A stretch of DNA of 64,000 nt from Taiwanofungus camphoratus (taxonomy: Eukaryota > Basidiomycota > Agaricomycetes > Polyporales > Taiwanofungaceae): contig CP021225.1 in the NCBI GenBank assembly GCA_003999685.1, positions 496,001-560,000 on the forward strand. The letters run 5' to 3'. The notes below the pieces were generated by a model that worked only from the letters and a program-made list of their open reading frames with translations, was not told where the DNA came from and did not search any database. The position numbers were made by a program, and so were the translations under genes. Below are positions 2,005 to 41,296 of this stretch, piece after piece (the first letter of the stretch is position 1; each line of letters starts with the position of its first letter).

Positions 2005-3399
<1,395 letters not shown>

Positions 3400-5084: not shown

Positions 5085-6887
5085 TCAACGCGCATCGTAC
5101 ATCACTAAATACGATGGCCGAATAGCATCGTTACTGTAAACCACTAATTCATCGTGGTTCAGGCTGTCTCCCTTCTCTGCGAGGACCTAAGCGGATGAGG
5201 TTAGAGCGTTTGAAAAATAGATACAACAGTAAACTGCTCACTGAGTCATAGCCTGCTGGGGGAGCAGTGAGCGTGGTATCATCTTTAGTTATCTTACAGC
5301 CCTTGCCTACGACGACTTTGTTCAATAGGATAGCTTTCAGTGGAGCATTGCCGTCTGTGTTGTGTGAATAGTCATTTGACCTGTGAAAGAGGAATAGAAG
5401 CTCAGCTTAATAAGGTATTGTCATGTCGAGCAGTCTGAGTACACACTTTGATGACGTAGAGGAAGTATAGACGCCGACTCCGAACCTGCGAGTTTAGGGT
5501 AGAATTCATGTGCAGGGAGGAGCGTTTGGTATAACTACCTTCCCCATCCAGTGTTCTTGCCACATGCACCGATATCGAACGATGTCTTGATGATACAGCA
5601 CAAAGAACAAGTCGAAGAAGAGCAGAATTGGGTATGACCCTTGTCTCCGATTGAACATTCCCGTCGAGTCCCATGCCACCGCCGATTCTCATTCCCAGCG
5701 GACCTTCCAGAGGCTAGGAATTGGCCACGGCTTTCAACTGCATTTCTGTGCTCATGGGCTGAAACATCAAAAATTGGGAAAAGCTAAATGGAAAGTCGTA
5801 CTTGTAGGCTTCATACTTGTCCAAAGATACTTGATGACCCACAATCTTGTAGATGTGCCGGACTGCGGGGCAGCGAGAGCCAGCATGTCTCCAGGATGTC
5901 TTAAATTGCGTAGCGACTGTATTCAACTGACATCAGGTACGGCTGAGGTATCATTCAAACATTACTAACCGTCTCGGAAAGTTACGTGATCTTCTGGTAT
6001 TTCTAGAAGTATAACAGCTTTCTTCTGCGCTTCATCTGCGCATGCACTACCGCAAAAATGACGATCACCTCGTCTGATAGCTTTGCGACACAAGAGGCAC
6101 GCGTTTTCTGCCAATCTAGGTAGAAAATCGAGAGTGGTTCTTGTGTTATAATCAGTATGGGTTTACCTCTTGTGTGCAAGTCCACAATATTTTCCTGTAC
6201 CATTGGGTGGCTTATAAGCAGGTTTATTGCAATCCGGTACTTGACACATCCCTGAGGAAACAGATAACTAAGCGTTGGAGATCCACCACTCGATCTTCGT
6301 ACACACCATTGCCGTTAGCGTTGATAGGATTTTGGCGCGTTCCGTTGGCCTTTGCCTGTTGAGCACATGTCTTGCTACAATACGGATGCAATGTTGTGCC
6401 GTCAAAGTACTTCGGACGACTATGACAAAACTACTTGCGAATAAGTCATTTGTCACACCAGTACCAGTGAGCGATGACTGACTGTACAGGTGCTACCGGA
6501 ACCCGCATGAGCATGGGACTTCGCTACCGCCGCGCAACTTTTCCCACAGTAAGGATGAGTCTTCGTTCCATCAAAATATTTAGGTCGTACATGACAACCC
6601 TGAGAGTAACCATATACGTAAACAGACAACATTGAGGTCCAGAAGATCCTTACCTCGCAAAGATTCGATGTGTTCGCTTTCGGTGGACTAGCGGAGGGTA
6701 TCACATTCGTGCCGTTCGTAGCCGGCGCTGAGGGAACTTTGATGGGGGCTGGTGTGCCGTTTACTGGGCCCGAGGAACAGGTCGAAGCCGCAGTGGAGGA
6801 AGGAACAGAAGCTTTTTGCAAATTCTGGAAGGCCGGGTGTTGTGCTGCCATATTTGCCAGGAATGACAAAGTAGGTATGGCAGACAT
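5085..6887 (-). CDS. PARP-like ADP-ribosyltransferase with four N-terminal zinc modules
   Basis: Predicted poly/mono-ADP-ribosyltransferase, moving ADP-ribose from NAD+ to a target. The ATG at 6887 opens a low-complexity Ser/Thr/Pro-rich N-terminus (about 75 residues). Four Cys/His modules follow: one ending THPYCGKSCA, one reading CTFCHSRPKYFDG...HPYCSKTCA, one reading CQVPDCNKPAYK...YCGLAHK, and one reading CLLCRKA...HFCGSAC. The PARP fold follows. Its His is in WHGTRRECSIGD, its Tyr in FGVGVYTSSTSSK and its Glu in DELVVYSNDAIRPSYLVMY, so an H-Y-E triad appears intact. A C-x(5)-C-x2-C cluster after the His (FCSSSTCSLC) is usual for this fungal subfamily. The stop is at 5085-5087. All exons join in frame through about eight short introns. 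Targets unknown; nuclear location is only a guess. Confidence 0.85.
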
Positions 6888-7141
6888 TGTCCTCCTTGCT
6901 TATGCCAGTGACGACGGATGAGCGGATTTGAGTTATTCAATTCTCAGGACTTGGAGAAATATTAGTACTACCTTGCCTACCCATAAGAACGTTCCTCTAC
7001 CTTGATTGTCTTGATGCACATGGCAGTCATGCTTGTTCAGCGATGCTATGTATCCCCTAGCAATGCGGTTGGAGCATGGTCACTGCCTGTCATGCTACAT
7101 GAGGGCGTCTTGGGATCTCGGACTGCTAAAGTCAACCAACC

Positions 7142-7762
7142 ATGTACTCCTCACTGAAATCTGTTATGCAGTGGACGACCTCGCCGAAGGTTTCGGTGCC
7201 AGATCATATGTGCGAGGTGAGGGTTCAATGCATCCTCAGGACTCAAGACGCTGGGCCGGTTCTTAATATCACACCTACCACGCAGACCTGCGGCGTCAAG
7301 CCAAAATTCGTTGAACACGGATATCAACATCCTTATTGCAGCAGGACATGCGCGAGGAATCACAGTAGTAAGACGGTATCGTGTGCTCTTCAGGGATGTC
7401 GTAGTTCGGGAAAGGCAGTGAACGGCGGATTCTGCTCTGACGCTCACGCTAGGTAAGCCCCTTTCAAGTACAGTTTCACAAATACAGAACGCACGATTGA
7501 TTGCAGAGACGCTGTCAAGATGCATCAAGTCCAGGCGTGTGCAATGTGCCGCTCTCTCCCGAGTACCATGGGCCAATTATGCGTAGCTTGCAATCGTCAC
7601 GGAGATGCTGGTCTCACTCTGCGGGAGGTAGACTTCAAAGATATCGCGTATAAGAGCGGTGCGGAGAAAATTTCATGGTCTTCAGCAGTGTGTCCTGATC
7701 AATATAGTAGTCGTGGCCAAATTTCTCGGTGCATGGTCAGGCGGCGACTGGCCGACCGTTGA
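7142..7762 (+). CDS. PARP-less zinc-module protein (relative of the 5085-6887 gene)
   Basis: Short gene with only the Cys/His part of the neighbouring PARP. The ATG at 7142 leads to MCE at a GTGAGG donor (7214). The next exon reads TCGVKPKFVEHGYQHPYCSR, matching module 1 of the minus-strand PARP with the same intron position. Then come a module-3-like CALQGCRSSGKAVNG...FCSDAHA and, after an intron near 7453-7505, a module-4-like ACAMCRSLP in which the usual FCG-x2-C is altered to LCVACNRH. The frame runs to a stop at 7760-7762 with no recognisable PARP domain. Either it is a true zinc-module-only protein or a gene that lost its catalytic half. The last 30 residues look non-conserved, so the true 3' end is uncertain. 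Confidence 0.55.
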
Positions 7763-8540
7763 GAAACTAGTAGGAATTGCCATTCCCTGCGACGTTCAAA
7801 CTAGATATGACAATCATTGGTGAATTTAATTCCACCCACTGGAGCTGTGTGCTGGATAAGACTTTGCTTGTAGGGGCATGCTTGAGACCACAACAAGCAT
7901 ACAAGAGCTTACCGCTTACCATAGCGCTCAATGCATATGCGATTTCGGAGTGAGGGATGTGGGGCCATGCAACTGGCAGTCATGCGGTATTTGTAACATA
8001 ATAAAGTCATCGTTCCGTGCCTTCGCGTTTGGCATCTCGTGTAATTCCGGCAGGTGAGGTATTTTCGGCAGACGTGATGTCTCGTCTGTGCTGACGGCAA
8101 TTGCCCATAGACACGGAGAAGGCATATATTCGTGCAAAAATCCTGCGCTGGCGGATAAATTTGCTACGTCGTCCACTTCGTCCCCATACCGTGTTATGCT
8201 CGCATGCACCGTCCTGGCGCCACGCAGGGGAGTTGGACACGATATCTTGACAAATTCTTCTGGCGAAGTACTCTGCGTTAGTGTCTTTTCTGATGAGCGT
8301 TAAATCAAAGCTGATGAGTTGCATAGGTCAATGACAGCGAAAAGGTTTTCGTGAATAGTGCAGATGCCATTGTACCGAACTATGTTATTTTGTACACAAA
8401 AAAGATTCGTGGTACTATCTTGTGATGTTGACTCACACCTCTTGTGATTGCTGTAGTTGAATACTTATTAAGTGAGTCCAATCACATCGGGACAAAAATG
8501 TACAATATGGTTACTTGAGTAATGGTATTCATGACCTCCA
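7763..8540. other. Intergenic between convergent cluster genes
   Basis: AT-rich around 8380-8480. A short open minus-strand frame at 7928-8209 has no recognisable motif. If the plus-strand gene at 7142 once carried a PARP domain it should have lain here, but no PARP motif remains in the plus-strand frames that I could read. Confidence 0.35.
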
Positions 8541-9589
8541 TCACGATGCCAATGGAGTGGTGAAGAGTTTTCGCAAGATCGTTTCCAGTGGTTTCCGGGC
8601 GCCTTGTGCAGGAACGGCGCCGTAGACTACGAGGTGAGTCGGACGAATGGCATCGTTCCGATAGACGACAGTTTCCTCGTAGTTGAGGTCAACTCCGGGC
8701 TCGCCAATCACAGAATCATATCCTGAAGGTGGTCTGGTAAGGTTGACGACATTGCGACGTAGCCTCTTCGCTCTGCCAATGACGACACGATTGAGGAGCA
8801 GGACTCGCCAGACTGCGTCCTTGGAGCCATTTTGGACATAGTCATCTGCCTCTGTTTTAAATTTGAGGTTAAGATAAAGACCTTGCCTATAAGTTGTAAG
8901 CTCACTAGAAGAGCATGCGCTGGTGTATATCCCACTTCCGAATCTGTCGGAAAACAAAGTATTGACTTATGTTCCTCTAGCACGGACATACCAGAAGAAT
9001 TCTTGATCACCTGCTGAATTTATGCTTGTATCCTGGTGAAAACAGCACATTAGACATGAGCATCAACTACGAGGAGCTGACTAACCACATCTTTCGACGT
9101 CAAAAGACTCGCGAAGGATGGCACATAAGTAGCACTCGGGTAGATTACAAAGTACGACATTTTGCGAAGTCTCCCCTAACAAGCAAGCTCGGTTGGTGCC
9201 ATGGAAGAGGAAGTGTTCGCCTTCTGGGGATGTTATGCTTTCCCTGGAGGTGAAAGGGAGGTGATAATAAGGTTTGAGGTCATAGGGCATGTACGCTCTC
9301 TTACTTATATTTCAAGTAGGGGCGAAGATTCGAGCTGGGAGAGACGATTTTGAAAATAGACTGCACAGGAGGCTGGGCTTTTTTGGCGTGCTTCCAGCCT
9401 TTCAGGAAAATTCTTTCGACTGCATGGCTTGTCAGCTATCCATGGTCTTGGCAAGAAGGGGAGGAGACGATGATGATGCGTACTTTCCGCATAATGGGGA
9501 TCGGTCGATGTCAGTGGTATCAGTCGAGCTAAGCGACTGCTCGTCACATTGACCGGGTTCTCCAACGAAAATTCGTCTATGATCTCCAT
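8541..9589 (-). CDS. PARP-like ADP-ribosyltransferase without zinc modules
   Basis: Second PARP-fold gene, stop at 8541-8543. Exons give, in order, a lead segment RLARLIPLTSTDPHYAE, an exon with LKGWKHAKK and VQSIFKIVSPSSNLRPYLKY, the NAD-site exon HFLFHGTNRACLLGE with the Cys cluster LCNLPECYLC, a mini-exon of about 22 bases near 9016-9037, then FGSGIYTSACSSK, and a last exon with PPSGYDSVIGEPG and NYEETVVYRNDAIRPTHLV. His, Tyr and Glu of the PARP triad are all present. The Trp-x-His segment and the linker match the minus-strand PARP at 5085-6887 module by module. The ATG at 9589 is the first in frame after an upstream stop. An upstream exon cannot be excluded, but no Cys/His zinc modules were found upstream, so this looks like a catalytic-domain-only form. 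Confidence 0.8.
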
Positions 9590-10313
9590 GATTTCTTTGG
9601 GTGTTACCCTGTCCCGGAAGCGCTAAAGGGCGATAATATATCCAAGACATGCATTCAAGAGCGTGACAACGTAAACTGCAGCGAAAGCATGCGCATTGTC
9701 TGCGACAGCGTGCATCGCCTCGGGCGTATGGTTGCGACCAGTTAGGAAACGCATTGAACACGTTCTGTCATTCAATGATCGGTTTTGCATGCCAGCACAG
9801 GTAAAAAGACAACTGTATATAGTAGATTGAAGCAAGGAGAATCGTTGGGAAAGTCAGAGTACAGCCTATCTGTTCAGCCACCAAGCCAATAGTAAGAAAC
9901 GCGCCGTAAGTTCTTGGTACGAGACTACTATGATCTGACCAGGCGAGAGTAAGAGTGTAACTGAGTCGGGCACCGAAAGGCAGCCGTGCACGTGATGGCG
10001 TCTCATCGATCATCTGCAAAGTCCAGGAAGGAGTATGTTCAACGACCTTGCATTGGCCCAGAATATGCCTCTCGTCCGTCTTCTGTTGCTCACTATGAAG
10101 ACGTTTGACAAAGGGTTTTTTGTATCAACCATCAAGACCGTTCCACGTGTAATCCGGACTGTGTAGCGCAGACGCACATACATGCGACAGCCGCTCGGAT
10201 GCAGCGAGGAAGAGTACCTCCACATGACCTCTCGGTATGAGCGAACGATCTTTAAACTTCAATTGTGATCTACTAGACTTCTCTATACTTTGCTCGCACT
10301 CATCAATCTCAAC
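9590..10313. other. Divergent region between the second PARP and the NADAR gene
   Basis: Shared upstream region of two divergent genes that may act on the same modification. A minus-strand frame with hydrophobic stretches (9768-10019) is open but matches no family I know, so it is not called a gene. Confidence 0.4.
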
Positions 10314-11363
10314 ATGCACGTACCTTCTCGCACAACTCGCCCAGTTGTCATCTCTGAAGCTCGTAATGGGCCTACGCAGCACACAGTTGATCGGCGAACA
10401 GGTACCCCAGTACAATATATCGTCACTGAACATCGTCGCACAGTCTACGTGACCTCGACTGTTTCCCCCGATAATTTGAATCCCCAGATAATCGACGACC
10501 TGCTCCAACCTGAAATGTTCGGAAGCAACTCTGACAATATTCAAAGGCACCATCGATCCAGATCTGACGACGGGCAAGAGAAACAGGACGGAAAGCGAGA
10601 CGGGGTTCCACAACCTTCCCCCACTAGCGCCAGACATTATTCGAACGAGCACAGGCATCCCAGTCTCCCGACTCTCAGAAACCATAATCCCCAGAAGACT
10701 CCTCCAAATACACCGGCTAGTCGCAGTCGTTTCTCTTGGACTCCAGCTCGACCTCGCATCCTTTTCTACCACAGTCACGAACCTTATTATGGCTTCACAA
10801 ACTTTTCTCCGCATTCTGTCACATACCGCAATAAACGGTATCCAACAAGTGAACATCTATTTCAGTCTTTCAAAGTAGGTGGCCATACTTTCTATTCTTA
10901 AAGGAGAGGAAGCTCAACTTCAGTCAGTTCCAGAAACATAGGCCCCATTTAGCCGAACACATCAGAACGTGTTCTGAAAGACCCAGCATAGCCTTTTCCG
11001 AAGCCCGTCGCTTCCAGCCAGAAGTTCGGAGCGATTGGATGGACGTGAACATAGCGAAGGTGCGTAGCTTGCATGATACCTCTTTCAGCCACAAGGTAAT
11101 CCCATATTTTCAGATGGAAGAGACTTTATGGCATAAATTCACTCAGCACCAAGATCTGCGAGAAGAATTACTTGCGACAGGTGATGCCGAACTTGTTGAG
11201 GTATGTTTTGTACTTGATAAAACAAAGAGCACATACGGACTTACGTCTCCATGAGAAGAACTCGGACAAGGACTCTTTTTGGGGAATTGGTGCTCATGGC
11301 AAGGGCCGTAACGAGCTCGGAAAAGCACTGGAGAGATTGCGTGATCAACTTCGTAAGACCTAA
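10314..11363 (+). CDS. NADAR-domain protein (YbiA-like fold)
   Basis: NADAR proteins are N-glycosidases related to YbiA. Known members act on riboflavin-pathway intermediates or remove ADP-ribose from nucleic acid bases. Four exons, 10314-10874, 10928-11059, 11114-11200 and 11256-11363, join in frame to give 295 residues. Residues 1-150 are polar and Pro/Ser/His-rich. The NADAR domain (about 152-290) shows ILFYHSHEPYYGFTNFSPHS, RYPTSEHLFQSFK, LAEHIRTC, SEARRFQPEVRSDW, EETLWHKFTQHQDLREELL and SFWGIGAHGKGRNELGK, all family hallmarks. The domain seems complete. The first ATG is at 10314; the frame upstream is open but has only a TTG. It sits among PARP-like genes, which suggests, but does not prove, a role in removing or processing ADP-ribose marks. 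Confidence 0.92.
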
Positions 11364-11597
11364 TTTCGACGTTTGCTGCGTCGCACTGCAAGTTATATCC
11401 CTGGACCCGTTTGATTCTCGAGGATCATTCATTAAATTATAATCAGCGCCCGCCACGTGCGTGGTGCACAATGTGTTGAAAGTGAGGACATTGCCAGTCC
11501 GCCGTGTGCTTACCGTGAGGAACCAGTCGCACCCGAACATCTATTTAAGCATGCCATAAGCAAGTAGGAGGGCAATTATTTTTCCATCGAGCACAAC

Positions 11598-12626
11598 ATG
11601 TCTAGCGCAATTGCCACTCCTTCTGTCTGTGATGTAAGTCCGAAGTGTACATTGTTCTTGCTCACAGGCCAATAACGTCTCAATCGCCGACAGTTTTGCC
11701 ACCAGAAACCAAAGTTTGGCGGTTATCCGTACTGTGGAAAGACCTGCGCAGCGCAGGCTGCTGCACTTCTCTGCGCCGTAAGTTCTGAAACTCACGCTGA
11801 TATAGATTCTTGACGCACATTTTGTCTCCAGCAATGTCACCAGAAGCCTAAGTATGGAAACTATGAGTACTGTGGCAAGAAATGTGCTGTGCAGGCGCAG
11901 GCTGTGAAGAAGCCTCCGGCAGCTACTACGAAGAATGTTCCCGGGCCTCATACTCGAAGTTCCAATGGCGTGCTAGCGTCAAGGAGCAATAATGTTCCGA
12001 GCAAACAGCAACCCATACCTGCACAATACATTTGTGAGCTAGATTGGTCTTTCCGCAGTGGAAGCTTGCCACTTAGCATGTCTGAAATTATCAGCTCAGC
12101 AGCCTGCACTTCAAGCTCAAGTCCCGCAGGCCAGCCAAACTCGTCCCGTTGCTCATTACATTCAAGCAGCCGCTGCACAGATACCGCGCATGTTCGCCAA
12201 CGCGCCGTCTATACCCGCTGGTCCTCAGGCCCGAGGGACTTATCAAAGCGCACCACCAAGATCGTCTTTCTATGGTAATACGAACAATTCGCCCACAATG
12301 GCGACGTCCGCCGGCCCACCATTTACGTACTCGAGTGCATCTGGCCAGCCGCCGGCGATGTGTCGCTTTCCAGGATGTAACGAACCCGCACATGTTGATG
12401 CAGATGGGTCGCAGACGAGCGATTTCTGTTCAATGAAACACCGCGAGTAGGTATATCCCTACAGACTATTTTGGAATTTATGAGCTAACGAGCTTTCCTG
12501 AGCAGGGACGCCGCCGTCAACGGCCTAGTTCCCCTCTGCATCATGTGCGGTGAACTACCTCAGAGCAAAGTTGATCATTTTTGCGGGAGAACATGTAGGG
12601 AGAGTGCATTGACAAAGCCGGAATGA
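11598..12626 (+). CDS. Four-zinc-module protein without PARP domain
   Basis: Protein with the same Cys/His kit as the PARP at 5085-6887 but no catalytic domain. It starts MSSAIATPSVCD, then after an intron FCHQKPKFGGYPYCGKTCA, then a second copy CAQCHQKPKYGNYEYCGKKC. A Pro/Gln/Ser-rich linker of about 150 residues follows, then the third module CRFPGCNEPAHVD...DFCSMKHRE. After the last intron (about 12450-12505) comes the fourth module CIMCGELP...HFCGRTCRES. The stop is at 12624-12626. Order and spacing of modules copy the PARP. The family appears widely in mushroom-forming fungi as hypothetical proteins; its role is unknown. Binding of zinc is inferred from Cys/His spacing only. A TATTTAA box lies about 55 bases upstream of the ATG. 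Confidence 0.8.
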
Positions 12627-38829: not shown

Positions 38830-41296
38830 ATGACGGTCTTCCTCCCCTTGGAGGCGTCATCGCCTTTTCCCCACTCCCCCTCTTTTCTTGTACCGTCAGC
38901 CGAGCCATCCGCACATGTCAAGAAGGTAATCAAAGCAATCATGAAGGCGCGCAGGATCGCTGTGGTTTGTGGTACGCAGCGGTCGTTGTGGGCGTGCTTT
39001 CTCGTCAGTATTCATGTCTTTTGAAGGCGCTGGGATCTCCGTTCAGGCCGGAATACCTGACTTTCGGTCGTCCGATGGTCTTTTCCAAAGTTTGAAGAAA
39101 GACAACCCATTTCTGAGCTCTGGGAGAGATTTATTTGATGCGTCAGTGTTCAATGTGAGTGCACGCGATTTCTGGTTGTGATTCGGGTCTCGTGCATTCC
39201 CAATCAAGTCTCTTGAAGAACGGTGTCAGGTGGCACCTCATCGCCACCTTACTTATGACCGTCCGGAATCATGGCAGTCTGGCAGTGCTTGGAGATCGCT
39301 TGCTGAAACCGCTGTATGAGTGGACTGCAATGTGCTGTGATCTGGTAGATATCCTCCTTAAGCGTCGTCAAACACATCGTGTGCCACGCATCGACCCGGG
39401 GTTCTTTGACATTTACAAGCTACAGAGGTCTAGTTGTCAAAGTGAGGTCGTTTTCACGCTGAAAATTAGGGTATCTGTATGCCTCGCTGGACATGCAACG
39501 GGACAATGTTCCGGTCTTTTGCTCAGGGACCACATTGTCGATGTTTGCTTCACATTTACATGTCGCGTCGTTGAGGCTCTGAGATGCTTCAATGAAGGTA
39601 ATGAAAGGGTTCCTATCCTGCATAACCTATCTTATGACCGATTTCACTTAAACTATTACTGATTCTTCTTGGACAGTCAGAGGGAACCACCTCTTTATTT
39701 TGCCAAATGATCGCCCAGCTCTACGAACTCTCTCAAGATGCCACACCAACCGCCTTCCATCAGGTTTTGCGCGCGCTAGACGACAGGCGCAAGCTTCTCC
39801 GAGTCTACACGCAGAACATTGACGCCCTCGAGATGAAGACTGGACTCACCTTCGGTGTCCCAGAGGTTGACGGCAAACGCTACAAGCCCCGCTCCACTAA
39901 AGGTAAACCCGAGAATGGCCCAGAGGAGGCCGGGCCGTCCACCCGAGTGGAGCCGCTTTCGAACGAACGACTACCCTCTCCTCCCGCCGAGACCCCTCGG
40001 TGCATCCCACTCCACGGCACACTGCAGTCTATGCACTGCCAGACGTGCACGCACTCTTTCCCGCTGCGCAACCACCTCGAGACGCTTACTGCTGGGCGCC
40101 CACCGTACTGTCCCGAGTGCACGGCGCTCGAGGAGACGCGCCAGCTCGTGGGCAAGCGGTCGCGTGGCGTCGGGAAGCTGCGCCCGAGCGTTGTGCTGTA
40201 TAACGAGATGCACAAGGACGGCGAGGAGGTCGGCGATGTCGTTCGCCGTGATCTGATCGGCAGCTCGAAGGGGAAGGGCAGGGCCGGTGCGGATCTCCTA
40301 TTAGTAGTGGGCACGAGTCTTAGAGTGCCGGGAACGAAGAGGATTGTCCGCGAGTTCTCGAAAGCTGTTCATTCTCGCGCGTCAACCGCAAACTCGTCGC
40401 AGAACGAGTCTTCAGCAACTTCGACTCTTGGTCTTGCGACGCCGACACCCTCTCCGCGCCGCTCCCCTGCAGATGATGAAGAGCCGCCGATAACAACGGT
40501 GTATCTTAATCTTGATTTTCCCGTGCCGACACGGGAATGGGAGGGCGTTTTCGATGTGTGGATCAGGGGGGACGCCCAAGAGTTCGCACAAATGCTACAC
40601 GATGAGATGGAGAGAGAGGCGAGAGCAAAGGAAGCAGCCAGCGAACGAAAGCGAAAGAGAGAAGAAGCCGCATTGGCGGCCAAACTAGATGGGAGCGAAG
40701 GTGCAGGCAAAGCCAAGAGTAGCAAGAAGCGCAAGAACGCTTCTGGCTTAGAGGCAGTTACTCCATCTACGAAGAAATGGAAGGTTGATCCTCTCACACC
40801 CATTTCGTTGATCAAACCCTCAGCCTCGAGCAAGAAGCATGAAGACACCACGTTGCCCACTCTTCCCAAAGACAATGCACGACCTAATGTCAAGACGAAG
40901 CTCACCATCAAGATACCAGCCAAGCGATTCCGCTATGTGCCAGAGGTGGTTATCACTACTCCTGTCCCGAAGAAGCCCAAGCTTCGCACACCAAGCCCTG
41001 CACCGTCGGACTCCCCACTCACCCCGGCCCCCTCACCTTCTCCACGGCACAGAAGAACCTCATCGACTGGCAAGGAGGCAAGGAGAACAATTCCACATAA
41101 CAGGCCTCCTCCCGAACGGCCGTCTTCGGGCATCGGAAGAGACACTAAATTGGACGCTCGTGCTGGACATGGGCACAATGTCAATGTCTCTCGCTGGGAT
41201 TGCATAGATGCATCAAGCGACTTGACCGACGATGAAATGCTGGACGATGCCGTTAGGTCTTTCGTCCGGTACGGCTCGCGTGCTCCTGGCGGATAG
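38830..41296 (+). CDS. Sirtuin, Hst3/Hst4-type NAD-dependent histone deacetylase
   Basis: NAD+-dependent protein deacetylase of the fungal Hst3/Hst4 group, which acts on histone H3K56ac in the nucleus. The ATG at 38830 gives MTVFLPLEASSPFPHSPSFL. After IAVVCG a short intron leads to GAGISVQAGIPDFRSSDGLF, the NAD-binding motif. A 522-base intron (39155-39676) follows SVFN. The main exon begins in SEGTTSLFCQMIAQLYELSQ and carries RVYTQNIDALE (catalytic Asn-Ile-Asp), CIPLHGTLQSMHCQTC with the catalytic His and first zinc Cys pair, YCPEC with the second pair, LRPSVVLYNE and LLLVVGTSLRVPG. The C-terminal 200 residues are basic and Ser/Pro-rich with Lys/Arg clusters (KRKREE, SKKRKN), likely nuclear localisation signals. 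Stop 41294-41296. Confidence 0.93.

What the first reader, a model, noticed from the sequence alone, without database searches (positions are those of the whole stretch)
5085..12626. Candidate ADP-ribosylation gene cluster: two PARPs, a NADAR protein and two zinc-module proteins
Seen: five adjacent genes in 7.5 kb, of which two have intact PARP H-Y-E residues, one has a full NADAR domain and three share one Cys/His module set. Known: PARPs write ADP-ribose marks, and some NADAR proteins cleave ADP-ribose from nucleic acid bases or act on related N-glycosidic substrates. Inferred: writer, eraser or processor and reader-like or target-binding zinc proteins may work as one system, for example in nucleic acid marking, stress response or genome defence. 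I know of no described fungal system with this make-up.
Basis: partly seen in the sequence, partly recalled or inferred. Interest (0 to 1): 0.82.

Follow-up and report, generated by a model that had tools for sequence, protein, structure and literature searches.

The report
Mushroom PARP–NADAR gene cluster
A mushroom genome holds, side by side, two enzymes that look able to attach ADP-ribose tags, an enzyme of a family that removes such tags, and zinc-binding helper proteins; the same neighbours recur across many mushrooms, but an unrelated gene next door is kept nearly as faithfully, so a shared job is plausible and not shown.

Summary
Five genes splice cleanly at 5085-12626: A (zinc modules + PARP), B (zinc arm, truncated PARP relative), C (PARP alone), D (NADAR), E (zinc modules alone). 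A and C keep H-Y-E and a Cys4 motif; D keeps the NADAR active-site residues. The organism is very probably Taiwanofungus camphoratus. Of two NADARs detected in the genome only D has the catalytic Glu. Two species have a joined C-A protein model and one metagenome protein joins D to E. A control weakens the inference: the flanking gene COQ4 shares the PARP contig in 25 of 33 species, so the whole block is conserved; and D passes NCBI's riboflavin-intermediate N-glycosidase cut-off. A reversible ADP-ribosylation module is my single best reading (0.45); conserved neighbourhood without coupling is close behind (0.38). Neither this zinc-module PARP family nor the cluster appeared in what I saw of ten literature searches.

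The parts
5085..6887 (-). Gene A: 435 aa, 10 exons; four Cys/His modules (C77-C100, C116-C139, C161-H185, C193-C212), PARP catalytic domain with H298-Y349-E415 and Cys4 (C304, C315, C320, C323)
   Evidence: public protein P0001 agrees
7142..7762 (+). Gene B: 165 aa, 3 exons; three Cys/His modules and the start of the PARP linker, then stop; probably a truncated PARP relative
8541..9589 (-). Gene C: 249 aa, 6 exons; PARP catalytic domain with H-Y-E and the Cys4 motif, no zinc modules
   Evidence: N-terminal part of P0002 and P0007 is 54% and 52% identical from residue 1 and 3 of C
10314..11363 (+). Gene D: 295 aa, 4 exons; NADAR domain about 146-295 with E180, K187, E260, D266, W269, plus a weakly conserved N-terminal stretch
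11598..12626 (+). Gene E: 264 aa, 5 exons; four Cys/His modules, the first two of the short CxxC-x11-CxxxC type, no PARP domain
   Evidence: E-like modules follow a NADAR in P0148
14481..15477 (+). COQ4 (ubiquinone biosynthesis), used as the flanking control gene; not part of the proposed module

Best explanation
The cluster is an old Agaricomycete gene neighbourhood that encodes a reversible ADP-ribosylation module. A and C transfer ADP-ribose from NAD+ to a target, A being aimed by its zinc-module arm. D hydrolyses the N-glycosidic ADP-ribose bond, most likely on a guanine base of DNA or RNA or on a small ADP-ribosyl compound. E, with the same zinc modules but no catalytic domain, competes for or recruits to the same target. 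Shown by sequence: gene models, intact active-site residues, shared descent of the zinc arms. Shown by proxy (equal contig lengths, locus numbers): conservation of the A-D neighbourhood. Inferred: all catalytic activities, the substrate, the role of E, and that A/C and D act on the same substrate.
For: H, Y and E are kept in 120, 120 and 119 of 120 listed A relatives, the fifteen module Cys in 108-120, the Cys4 after the catalytic His in 120. E180, K187, E260, D266, W269 of D are kept in 119, 120, 117, 120, 120 of 120 listed NADAR relatives. PARP and NADAR share a contig in 40 of 44 species on both lists, against 2.5 expected, and in 20 of 20 where the PARP contig is under 500 kb; 40 of 42 after dropping two species with only a NADAR paralogue listed. 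Gene numbers differ by 2-3 in four of the six species with serial locus numbers, by 18 and 20 in the other two. Two species keep A-D while the listed COQ4 is on another contig (Tetrapyrgos nigripes, there on a 21 kb contig; Mycena kentingensis). C-A joined models in two species; D-E joined in P0148. In the own genome PARPs of this family were found only at this locus, and the only other NADAR found lacks the Glu. NADARs cleave guanine-ADP-ribose on DNA (PMC11543638, PMC11125620: passages and one section each) and RNA (PMC11833690, passages).
Against: COQ4, with no known ADP-ribose role, shares the PARP contig in 25 of 33 and the D-type NADAR contig in 27 of 34 species; in the 21 species on all three lists with a D-type NADAR the counts are PARP-NADAR 21, PARP-COQ4 19, NADAR-COQ4 18 (dropping M. 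epipterygia), which does not separate them. D scores 99.8 bits against a 73.7 cut-off for riboflavin-intermediate N-glycosidase. I saw no report of a PARP that modifies guanine, and the NADARs tested in print were inactive or nearly so on PARP10-made uracil-ADP-ribose (PMC13036486, passages) and on phosphate-end RNA ADP-ribose (PMC11833690, passages). No expression or biochemical data.
Confidence: 0.45

Rival explanations
1. Conserved neighbourhood without coupling. The block PARP-NADAR-COQ4 is ancestral in Agaricomycetes and simply decays slowly; D is a housekeeping YbiA-type enzyme that clears riboflavin intermediates, and A/C ADP-ribosylate something unrelated.
For: COQ4 shares the contig in 25 of 33 (PARP) and 27 of 34 (D-type NADAR) species. 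COQ4 lies between PARP and NADAR by gene number in Amanita inopinata (006596, 006604, 006614). TIGR02464 above cut-off; best solved relative is E. coli YbiA.
Against: Among the 21 species on all three lists, two keep PARP with NADAR while COQ4 is elsewhere and none shows the clear reverse. PARP-NADAR 40 of 42 against PARP-COQ4 25 of 33 gives Fisher p 0.018, though contig breaks inflate the second set of misses and the 42 rest on a cut-off chosen after seeing the data. By my arithmetic the chance that a given NADAR lies within 5 kb of a given locus is about 3 in 10,000 (10 kb in 33 Mb), before allowing for other eye-catching pairs.
Confidence: 0.38
2. The cluster is mainly the product of local duplication: one zinc-module PARP gave rise to C, B and E, which are a degenerating set around A; only A and D matter.
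For: Shared introns in A, B and E modules and in A and C PARP domains. B stops in the PARP linker.
Against: C-type PARP with the same N-terminus and no zinc arm recurs in front of A-type in Gymnopilus dilepis and Psilocybe cyanescens models, with the Cys4 kept. E-type short modules recur after a NADAR in P0148. These are not local debris. The reading may still hold for B.
Confidence: 0.12
3. Self-harm and rescue pair, as in DarT-NADAR: A or C makes a toxic nucleic-acid mark upon infection or in non-self recognition, and D is the protecting eraser.
For: NADARs act as antitoxins beside an ADP-ribosyltransferase in bacteria (PMC11543638, passages). D has weak matches to a NADAR anti-phage model (63.2 of 240 bits needed) and a PADLOC candidate (27 bits, E 1.1e-6).
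Against: Those scores are below cut-off or weak and follow from general NADAR homology. A and C are PARPs, not DarT. A is well conserved across genera (50-73% identity over the aligned part for the other 119 listed relatives), unlike a fast-changing conflict gene. Mobile-element context was not searched.
Confidence: 0.05

Closest known systems
DarT1-NADAR (DarTG1) toxin-antitoxin system
   Same: An ADP-ribosyltransferase gene beside a NADAR hydrolase gene; Glu, Lys and an acidic residue in the NADAR active site
   Different: DarT is not a PARP of this type; a bacterial two-gene operon; D has the YbiA-class Glu (E260) in place of the DarT1-linked Asp; here extra zinc-module proteins and a second transferase
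YbiA / COG3236 / TIGR02464 riboflavin-intermediate N-glycosidase
   Same: D 148-292 aligns with E. coli YbiA 16-156 of 168 (2b3w, E 5.5e-25) and passes the NCBI cut-off
   Different: D has a weakly conserved N-terminal extension and sits beside PARPs; the riboflavin activity is not tested
Fungal PARPs of clades 1 and 6 (Citarelli 2010, PMC2964712, passages)
   Same: PARP catalytic domain in a filamentous fungus
   Different: No WGR, PARP regulatory or UBC domain matched in A by Pfam; instead four Cys/His modules. The passages state that fungi have only clades 1 and 6
PARP4, PARP3 and tankyrases
   Same: Best solved-structure sequence relatives of the A family profile (E 6.9e-11, 3.2e-10, 1.5e-8)
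   Different: Remote; different accessory domains. The tankyrase zinc motif lies elsewhere in the domain (recalled), while A and C have Cys4 right after HGT
Zinc-finger PARPs of animals (such as PARP13/ZAP)
   Same: Zinc modules N-terminal to a PARP domain
   Different: CCCH fingers and WWE domains there (PMC2964712, passage); here C-x2-C-x11/15-C-x3-C modules without a Pfam match above cut-off in A

Membership tests
PARP (PF00644), H-Y-E type | Pfam catalytic domain above cut-off | tested here: met
   A 45.9 bits, C 50.6 bits, cut-off 26.7
PARP (PF00644), H-Y-E type | H, Y and E catalytic residues | tested here: met
   A and C; 120/120/119 of 120 listed A relatives
PARP (PF00644), H-Y-E type | NAD+-dependent ADP-ribosyl transfer | not testable with these tools
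   needs an assay
Clade 1 (PARP1-like) fungal PARP | WGR and PARP regulatory domains | tested here: not met
   No such Pfam match in A or C or among the 14 families matched by 46 A relatives
NADAR superfamily (PF08719) | Pfam domain over its full length | tested here: met
   127.3 bits, profile 2-163 of 163
NADAR superfamily (PF08719) | Active-site Glu, Lys and acidic residue (PMC11543638, section 12) | tested here: met
   E180, K187, E260; correspondence by my reading of the alignments
DarT1-associated (BC4488) NADAR | Asp at the second acidic site, beside DarT1 | tested here: not met
   E260 is Glu, as in 117 of 120 relatives; the neighbours are PARPs
Riboflavin-intermediate N-glycosidase (TIGR02464) | NCBIfam equivalog-domain score above cut-off | tested here: met
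   99.8 against 73.7 bits
Riboflavin-intermediate N-glycosidase (TIGR02464) | Cleavage of riboflavin pathway intermediates | not testable with these tools
   needs an assay
Functional writer-eraser gene pair | Linkage kept beyond the background of flanking genes | tested here: inconclusive
   40 of 42 against COQ4 25 of 33 and 27 of 34
Functional writer-eraser gene pair | Eraser removes the mark made by the writer | not testable with these tools
   needs an assay

The most novel reading that the evidence does not exclude
Mushrooms carry a eukaryotic counterpart of DarT-NADAR: a zinc-targeted PARP pair that ADP-ribosylates nucleic-acid bases and a NADAR that removes the mark, with a zinc-only protein that reads or guards the same sites, kept as one gene cluster since early Agaricomycete evolution.
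Probability: 0.2. Interest if true: 0.88.

Novelty: new variant of a known kind. Interest (0 to 1): 0.62.

Why it matters
What NADARs do in eukaryotes is an open question, stated as such in PMC11125620 (discussion passage). A conserved PARP-NADAR neighbourhood in mushrooms, some of which are genetically tractable (recalled), would give that question a directly testable writer and eraser. It also points to a zinc-module PARP family, with a Cys4 invariant in 120 of 120 listed relatives, that the one survey of fungal PARPs I saw (PMC2964712, passages) does not describe in those passages. If the coupling proves false, the block is still an unusually stable piece of Agaricomycete gene order.

Tried and rejected
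Pfam PARP search of the own genome gave nothing, even for A and C, because it reads exon by exon; replaced by protein queries. Other PARPs may be missed: one WGR match exists at C1:13.6 kb.

Own-genome uniqueness of the zinc modules: the search with A found A and C but not B or E, and the search with E found only E. Since these searches miss known divergent copies, they do not show that the modules occur nowhere else.

Mating-type region synteny as the cause of linkage: homeodomain and peptidase M3 matches lie on C1 and C7, none on C6; rejected.

Viral or prokaryotic relatives of A: 60 and 19 pattern matches in viral contigs and genome contigs, none confirmed as a relative.

Split-gene idea (B and C as halves of one gene): dropped, because both cover the same linker region (by eye).

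Tankyrase-type zinc motif for the Cys4: dropped, because its place in the domain differs (recalled).

Genus-level co-occurrence of A and D among genera with a listed COQ4: both 15, PARP only 9, NADAR only 7, neither 38 of 69 genera, odds ratio 9.0, p 1.2e-4; 7.6 and 8e-4 on 63 genera without six early-branching ones. Kept as weak only: the lists show the best 120 of 364, 870 and 2346 hits, genera are not independent, and this window's own genus was added by hand to the NADAR side.

The 72% identity line between D-type NADARs and paralogues was drawn after seeing the values. Genome sizes for the chance estimate (30 Mb, Mycena 50 Mb) are assumed. Locus numbers are assumed to follow gene order; JGI protein numbers were not used for distances.
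Full report
WHAT IS THERE. The window lies on contig 6 of a 33.2 Mb genome in 15 contigs, very probably Taiwanofungus camphoratus: gene A matches AcV5_008361 at 100% (rounded) over 97% of its length and COQ4 matches that species at 100%. I built five spliced genes by hand, with GT-AG introns of 51-69 bases. A is 435 aa: four Cys/His modules, then a PARP domain. B is 165 aa: three modules, then the start of the linker that leads to the PARP domain in A, then a stop. C is 249 aa: a PARP domain alone. D is 295 aa: a variable front part and a full NADAR domain. E is 264 aa: four modules and no catalytic domain. Pfam confirms PARP in A and C and NADAR in D. The zinc modules of A, B and E match no Pfam family above cut-off; weak matches among A relatives include zf-HIT, zf-FCS (MYM-type) and EsV-1-7.

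THE ZINC MODULES. In A the pattern is C-x2-C-x15-C-x3-C twice, C-x4-C-x14-C-x3-H, and C-x2-C-x11-C-x3-C. Among 120 listed relatives of A the fifteen Cys are kept in 108-120, H93, H132 and H185 in 111-115, and H206 in 103; H81 and H120 are kept in 53 and 64, and H107 and H109 in a spacer are not conserved. E has the short x11 form in its first two modules. In A, B and E a phase-0 intron splits the CxxC pair of the early modules and a phase-2 intron follows the third module, so the arms share descent. Own-genome searches found no further copies, but the search with A missed B and E, and the search with E missed A and B, so divergent copies elsewhere are not excluded.

THE PARPS. H-Y-E is present in A and C, and in 120, 120 and 119 of 120 relatives of A. 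Four Cys just after the HGT motif (A C304, C315, C320, C323) are present in 120 of 120, and C has the same set with one more residue in the first gap. This looks like a structural zinc site inside the catalytic domain; I infer that from the invariance alone. By sequence the family is closest among solved structures to PARP4, PARP3 and the tankyrases. It lacks the WGR and regulatory domains of clade 1 PARPs by Pfam. The passages I saw of Citarelli 2010 (PMC2964712) say fungi have only clades 1 and 6 and give Postia placenta a clade 1 PARP only; yet Rhodonia placenta (the same species, recalled) has an A-type protein (P0110). Whether that survey counted it under clade 1 I cannot tell. In the own genome the protein searches found this PARP family only at this locus.

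THE NADAR. D aligns over its whole domain with E. coli YbiA (2b3w, E 5.5e-25) and less well with the NADAR 8bau (E 4.2e-6). Using the residues named in Schuller 2023 (PMC11543638, section 12), the two Glu and the Lys correspond by my reading to E180, E260 and K187; they are kept in 119, 117 and 120 of 120 relatives. D is of the YbiA class (Glu, not Asp, at the second site). Its front part is only weakly conserved: in D-type relatives mostly 20-35% identity over about 60 residues, 9-14% in a few. D passes the NCBI cut-off for riboflavin-intermediate N-glycosidase, 99.8 against 73.7 bits. That does not exclude ADP-ribose activity: YbiA itself cleaves guanine-ADP-ribose in vitro but does not protect cells from DarT1 (PMC11125620, section 5), and NADARs act on guanosine-ADP-ribose in RNA (PMC11833690, passages). 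The only other NADAR found in the genome (C2:2.943 Mb) has Phe where the first Glu should be, by my reading of its frame, and no convincing PARP or module match within about 4.5 kb on either side.

NEIGHBOURHOOD CONSERVATION. Searches list the best 120 of 364 PARP and 120 of 870 NADAR relatives, with contig lengths. I tabulated 98 and 83 named rows: 87 and 72 species, 44 on both lists. Where the PARP contig is under 500 kb it is 20 of 20; for larger contigs a shared contig does not mean close. The four misses: in Mycena capillaripes and M. epipterygia the listed NADAR is a paralogue without the D-type front part, leaving 40 of 42; Ephemerocybe angulata rows carry different locus prefixes, so may be different assemblies; Lyophyllum shimeji remains a miss. 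Of six linked species with serial locus numbers, PARP and NADAR are 3 apart in Amanita phalloides, Cerrena zonata and Tetrapyrgos nigripes, 2 apart in Stygiomarasmius scandens, but 18 and 20 apart in Amanita inopinata and Psilocybe cyanescens.

THE OTHER MEMBERS. Protein models P0002 (Gymnopilus dilepis) and P0007 (Psilocybe cyanescens) begin with a C-type PARP (54% and 52% identical to C) and end with an A-type PARP behind zinc modules (only part of the modules aligns in P0007). In the window C lies upstream of A on the same strand, so this is the same order, whether as a true fusion or as two genes joined by the annotator. P0148, an unnamed metagenome protein on a 1.6 kb contig, is a D-type NADAR followed by two E-type short modules; in the window E follows D on the same strand. 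It is the only one of 120 NADAR relatives with such a module. So C and E are not confined to this species. For B I have no such support. No protein search was left for C, B or E, so how widely they occur is untested.

THE CONTROL. I spent the last protein search on COQ4, the next gene with a Pfam match beyond E (the best 120 of 2346 listed). COQ4 shares the PARP contig in 25 of 33 species and the D-type NADAR contig in 27 of 34. One PARP-COQ4 miss is T. camphoratus itself, where the two are about 7.6 kb apart in the window, because the listed rows have different contigs, so probably different assemblies; several others involve contigs of 15-85 kb and may be breaks. In the 22 species on all three lists (21 after dropping M. 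epipterygia) PARP-NADAR holds in 21, PARP-COQ4 in 19, NADAR-COQ4 in 18. Tetrapyrgos and M. kentingensis keep PARP with NADAR while the listed COQ4 is elsewhere (in Tetrapyrgos on a 21 kb contig); Favolaschia claudopus has one PARP with the NADAR and another with COQ4. The direct comparison 40 of 42 against 25 of 33 gives p 0.018, but contig breaks bias it. I conclude that the whole block is conserved and that linkage alone does not prove coupling. The region is not the mating-type locus.

HOW IT MOST LIKELY WORKS. Best reading (0.45): A and C write ADP-ribose, A aimed by its zinc arm; D removes it; E competes or recruits through the shared arm. What favours it beyond linkage is that two rare, chemically matched families meet at one spot, that the zinc arm is shared by the writer and by the protein next to the eraser, and that C and E recur elsewhere in the same positions. 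The main rival (0.38) is slow decay of an ancestral block with D as a riboflavin damage-control enzyme. Substrate identity is the weak point: the NADARs tested in print cleave guanine-linked ADP-ribose, are inactive or nearly so on PARP10-made uracil-ADP-ribose (PMC13036486, passages) and on RNA phosphate ends (PMC11833690, passages), and I saw no report of a PARP that modifies guanine.

NOVELTY. Ten paper searches (one of them on riboflavin N-glycosidase) and passages of eight papers, with one section each of two of them, showed no description of a fungal PARP-NADAR cluster or of this zinc-module PARP. Three listings were capped: 30 of 78, 15 of 35 and 5 of 83 papers shown. The library is open-access only; the founding NADAR paper (de Souza and Aravind 2012, recalled) is not held and might mention fungal contexts. 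As a system it is a new variant of a known kind, transferase next to NADAR.

Noticed in passing
window 5539-5745 and 9086-9243 (A and C, just after HGT): Four Cys after the catalytic His motif, invariant in 120 of 120 listed A relatives and present in C: probable structural zinc site inside the PARP domain.
   Followed up: partly
G000 C2:2942995-2943689 (L024, L025, L044): Second NADAR of the genome, behind a long low-complexity front; Phe in place of the catalytic Glu by my reading, so possibly a non-catalytic NADAR.
   Followed up: partly
P0003 and P0046 (Thelephora terrestris): Protein models with two A-type zinc-module PARP units in a row: tandem copies or true double-PARP proteins.
   Followed up: partly
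P0131 (Asterophora parasitica): NADAR protein with a second, partial NADAR-like repeat at its end (by eye).
   Followed up: no
window 39638-41296: Sir2 family protein, another NAD+-consuming family, 27 kb from the cluster.
   Followed up: no
G000 C6:852564-852810: The only macrodomain locus found in the genome, on the same contig about 345 kb away.
   Followed up: no
COQ4-list genera Trametes, Ganoderma, Dichomitus, Fomes, Polyporus: None of these is among the named rows of the 120 best PARP or NADAR relatives although other Polyporales are: possible joint loss, not tested with full lists.
   Followed up: partly
window 2445-3035: Ribosomal protein L4 on the other side of the cluster; could serve as a second synteny control.
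   Followed up: no
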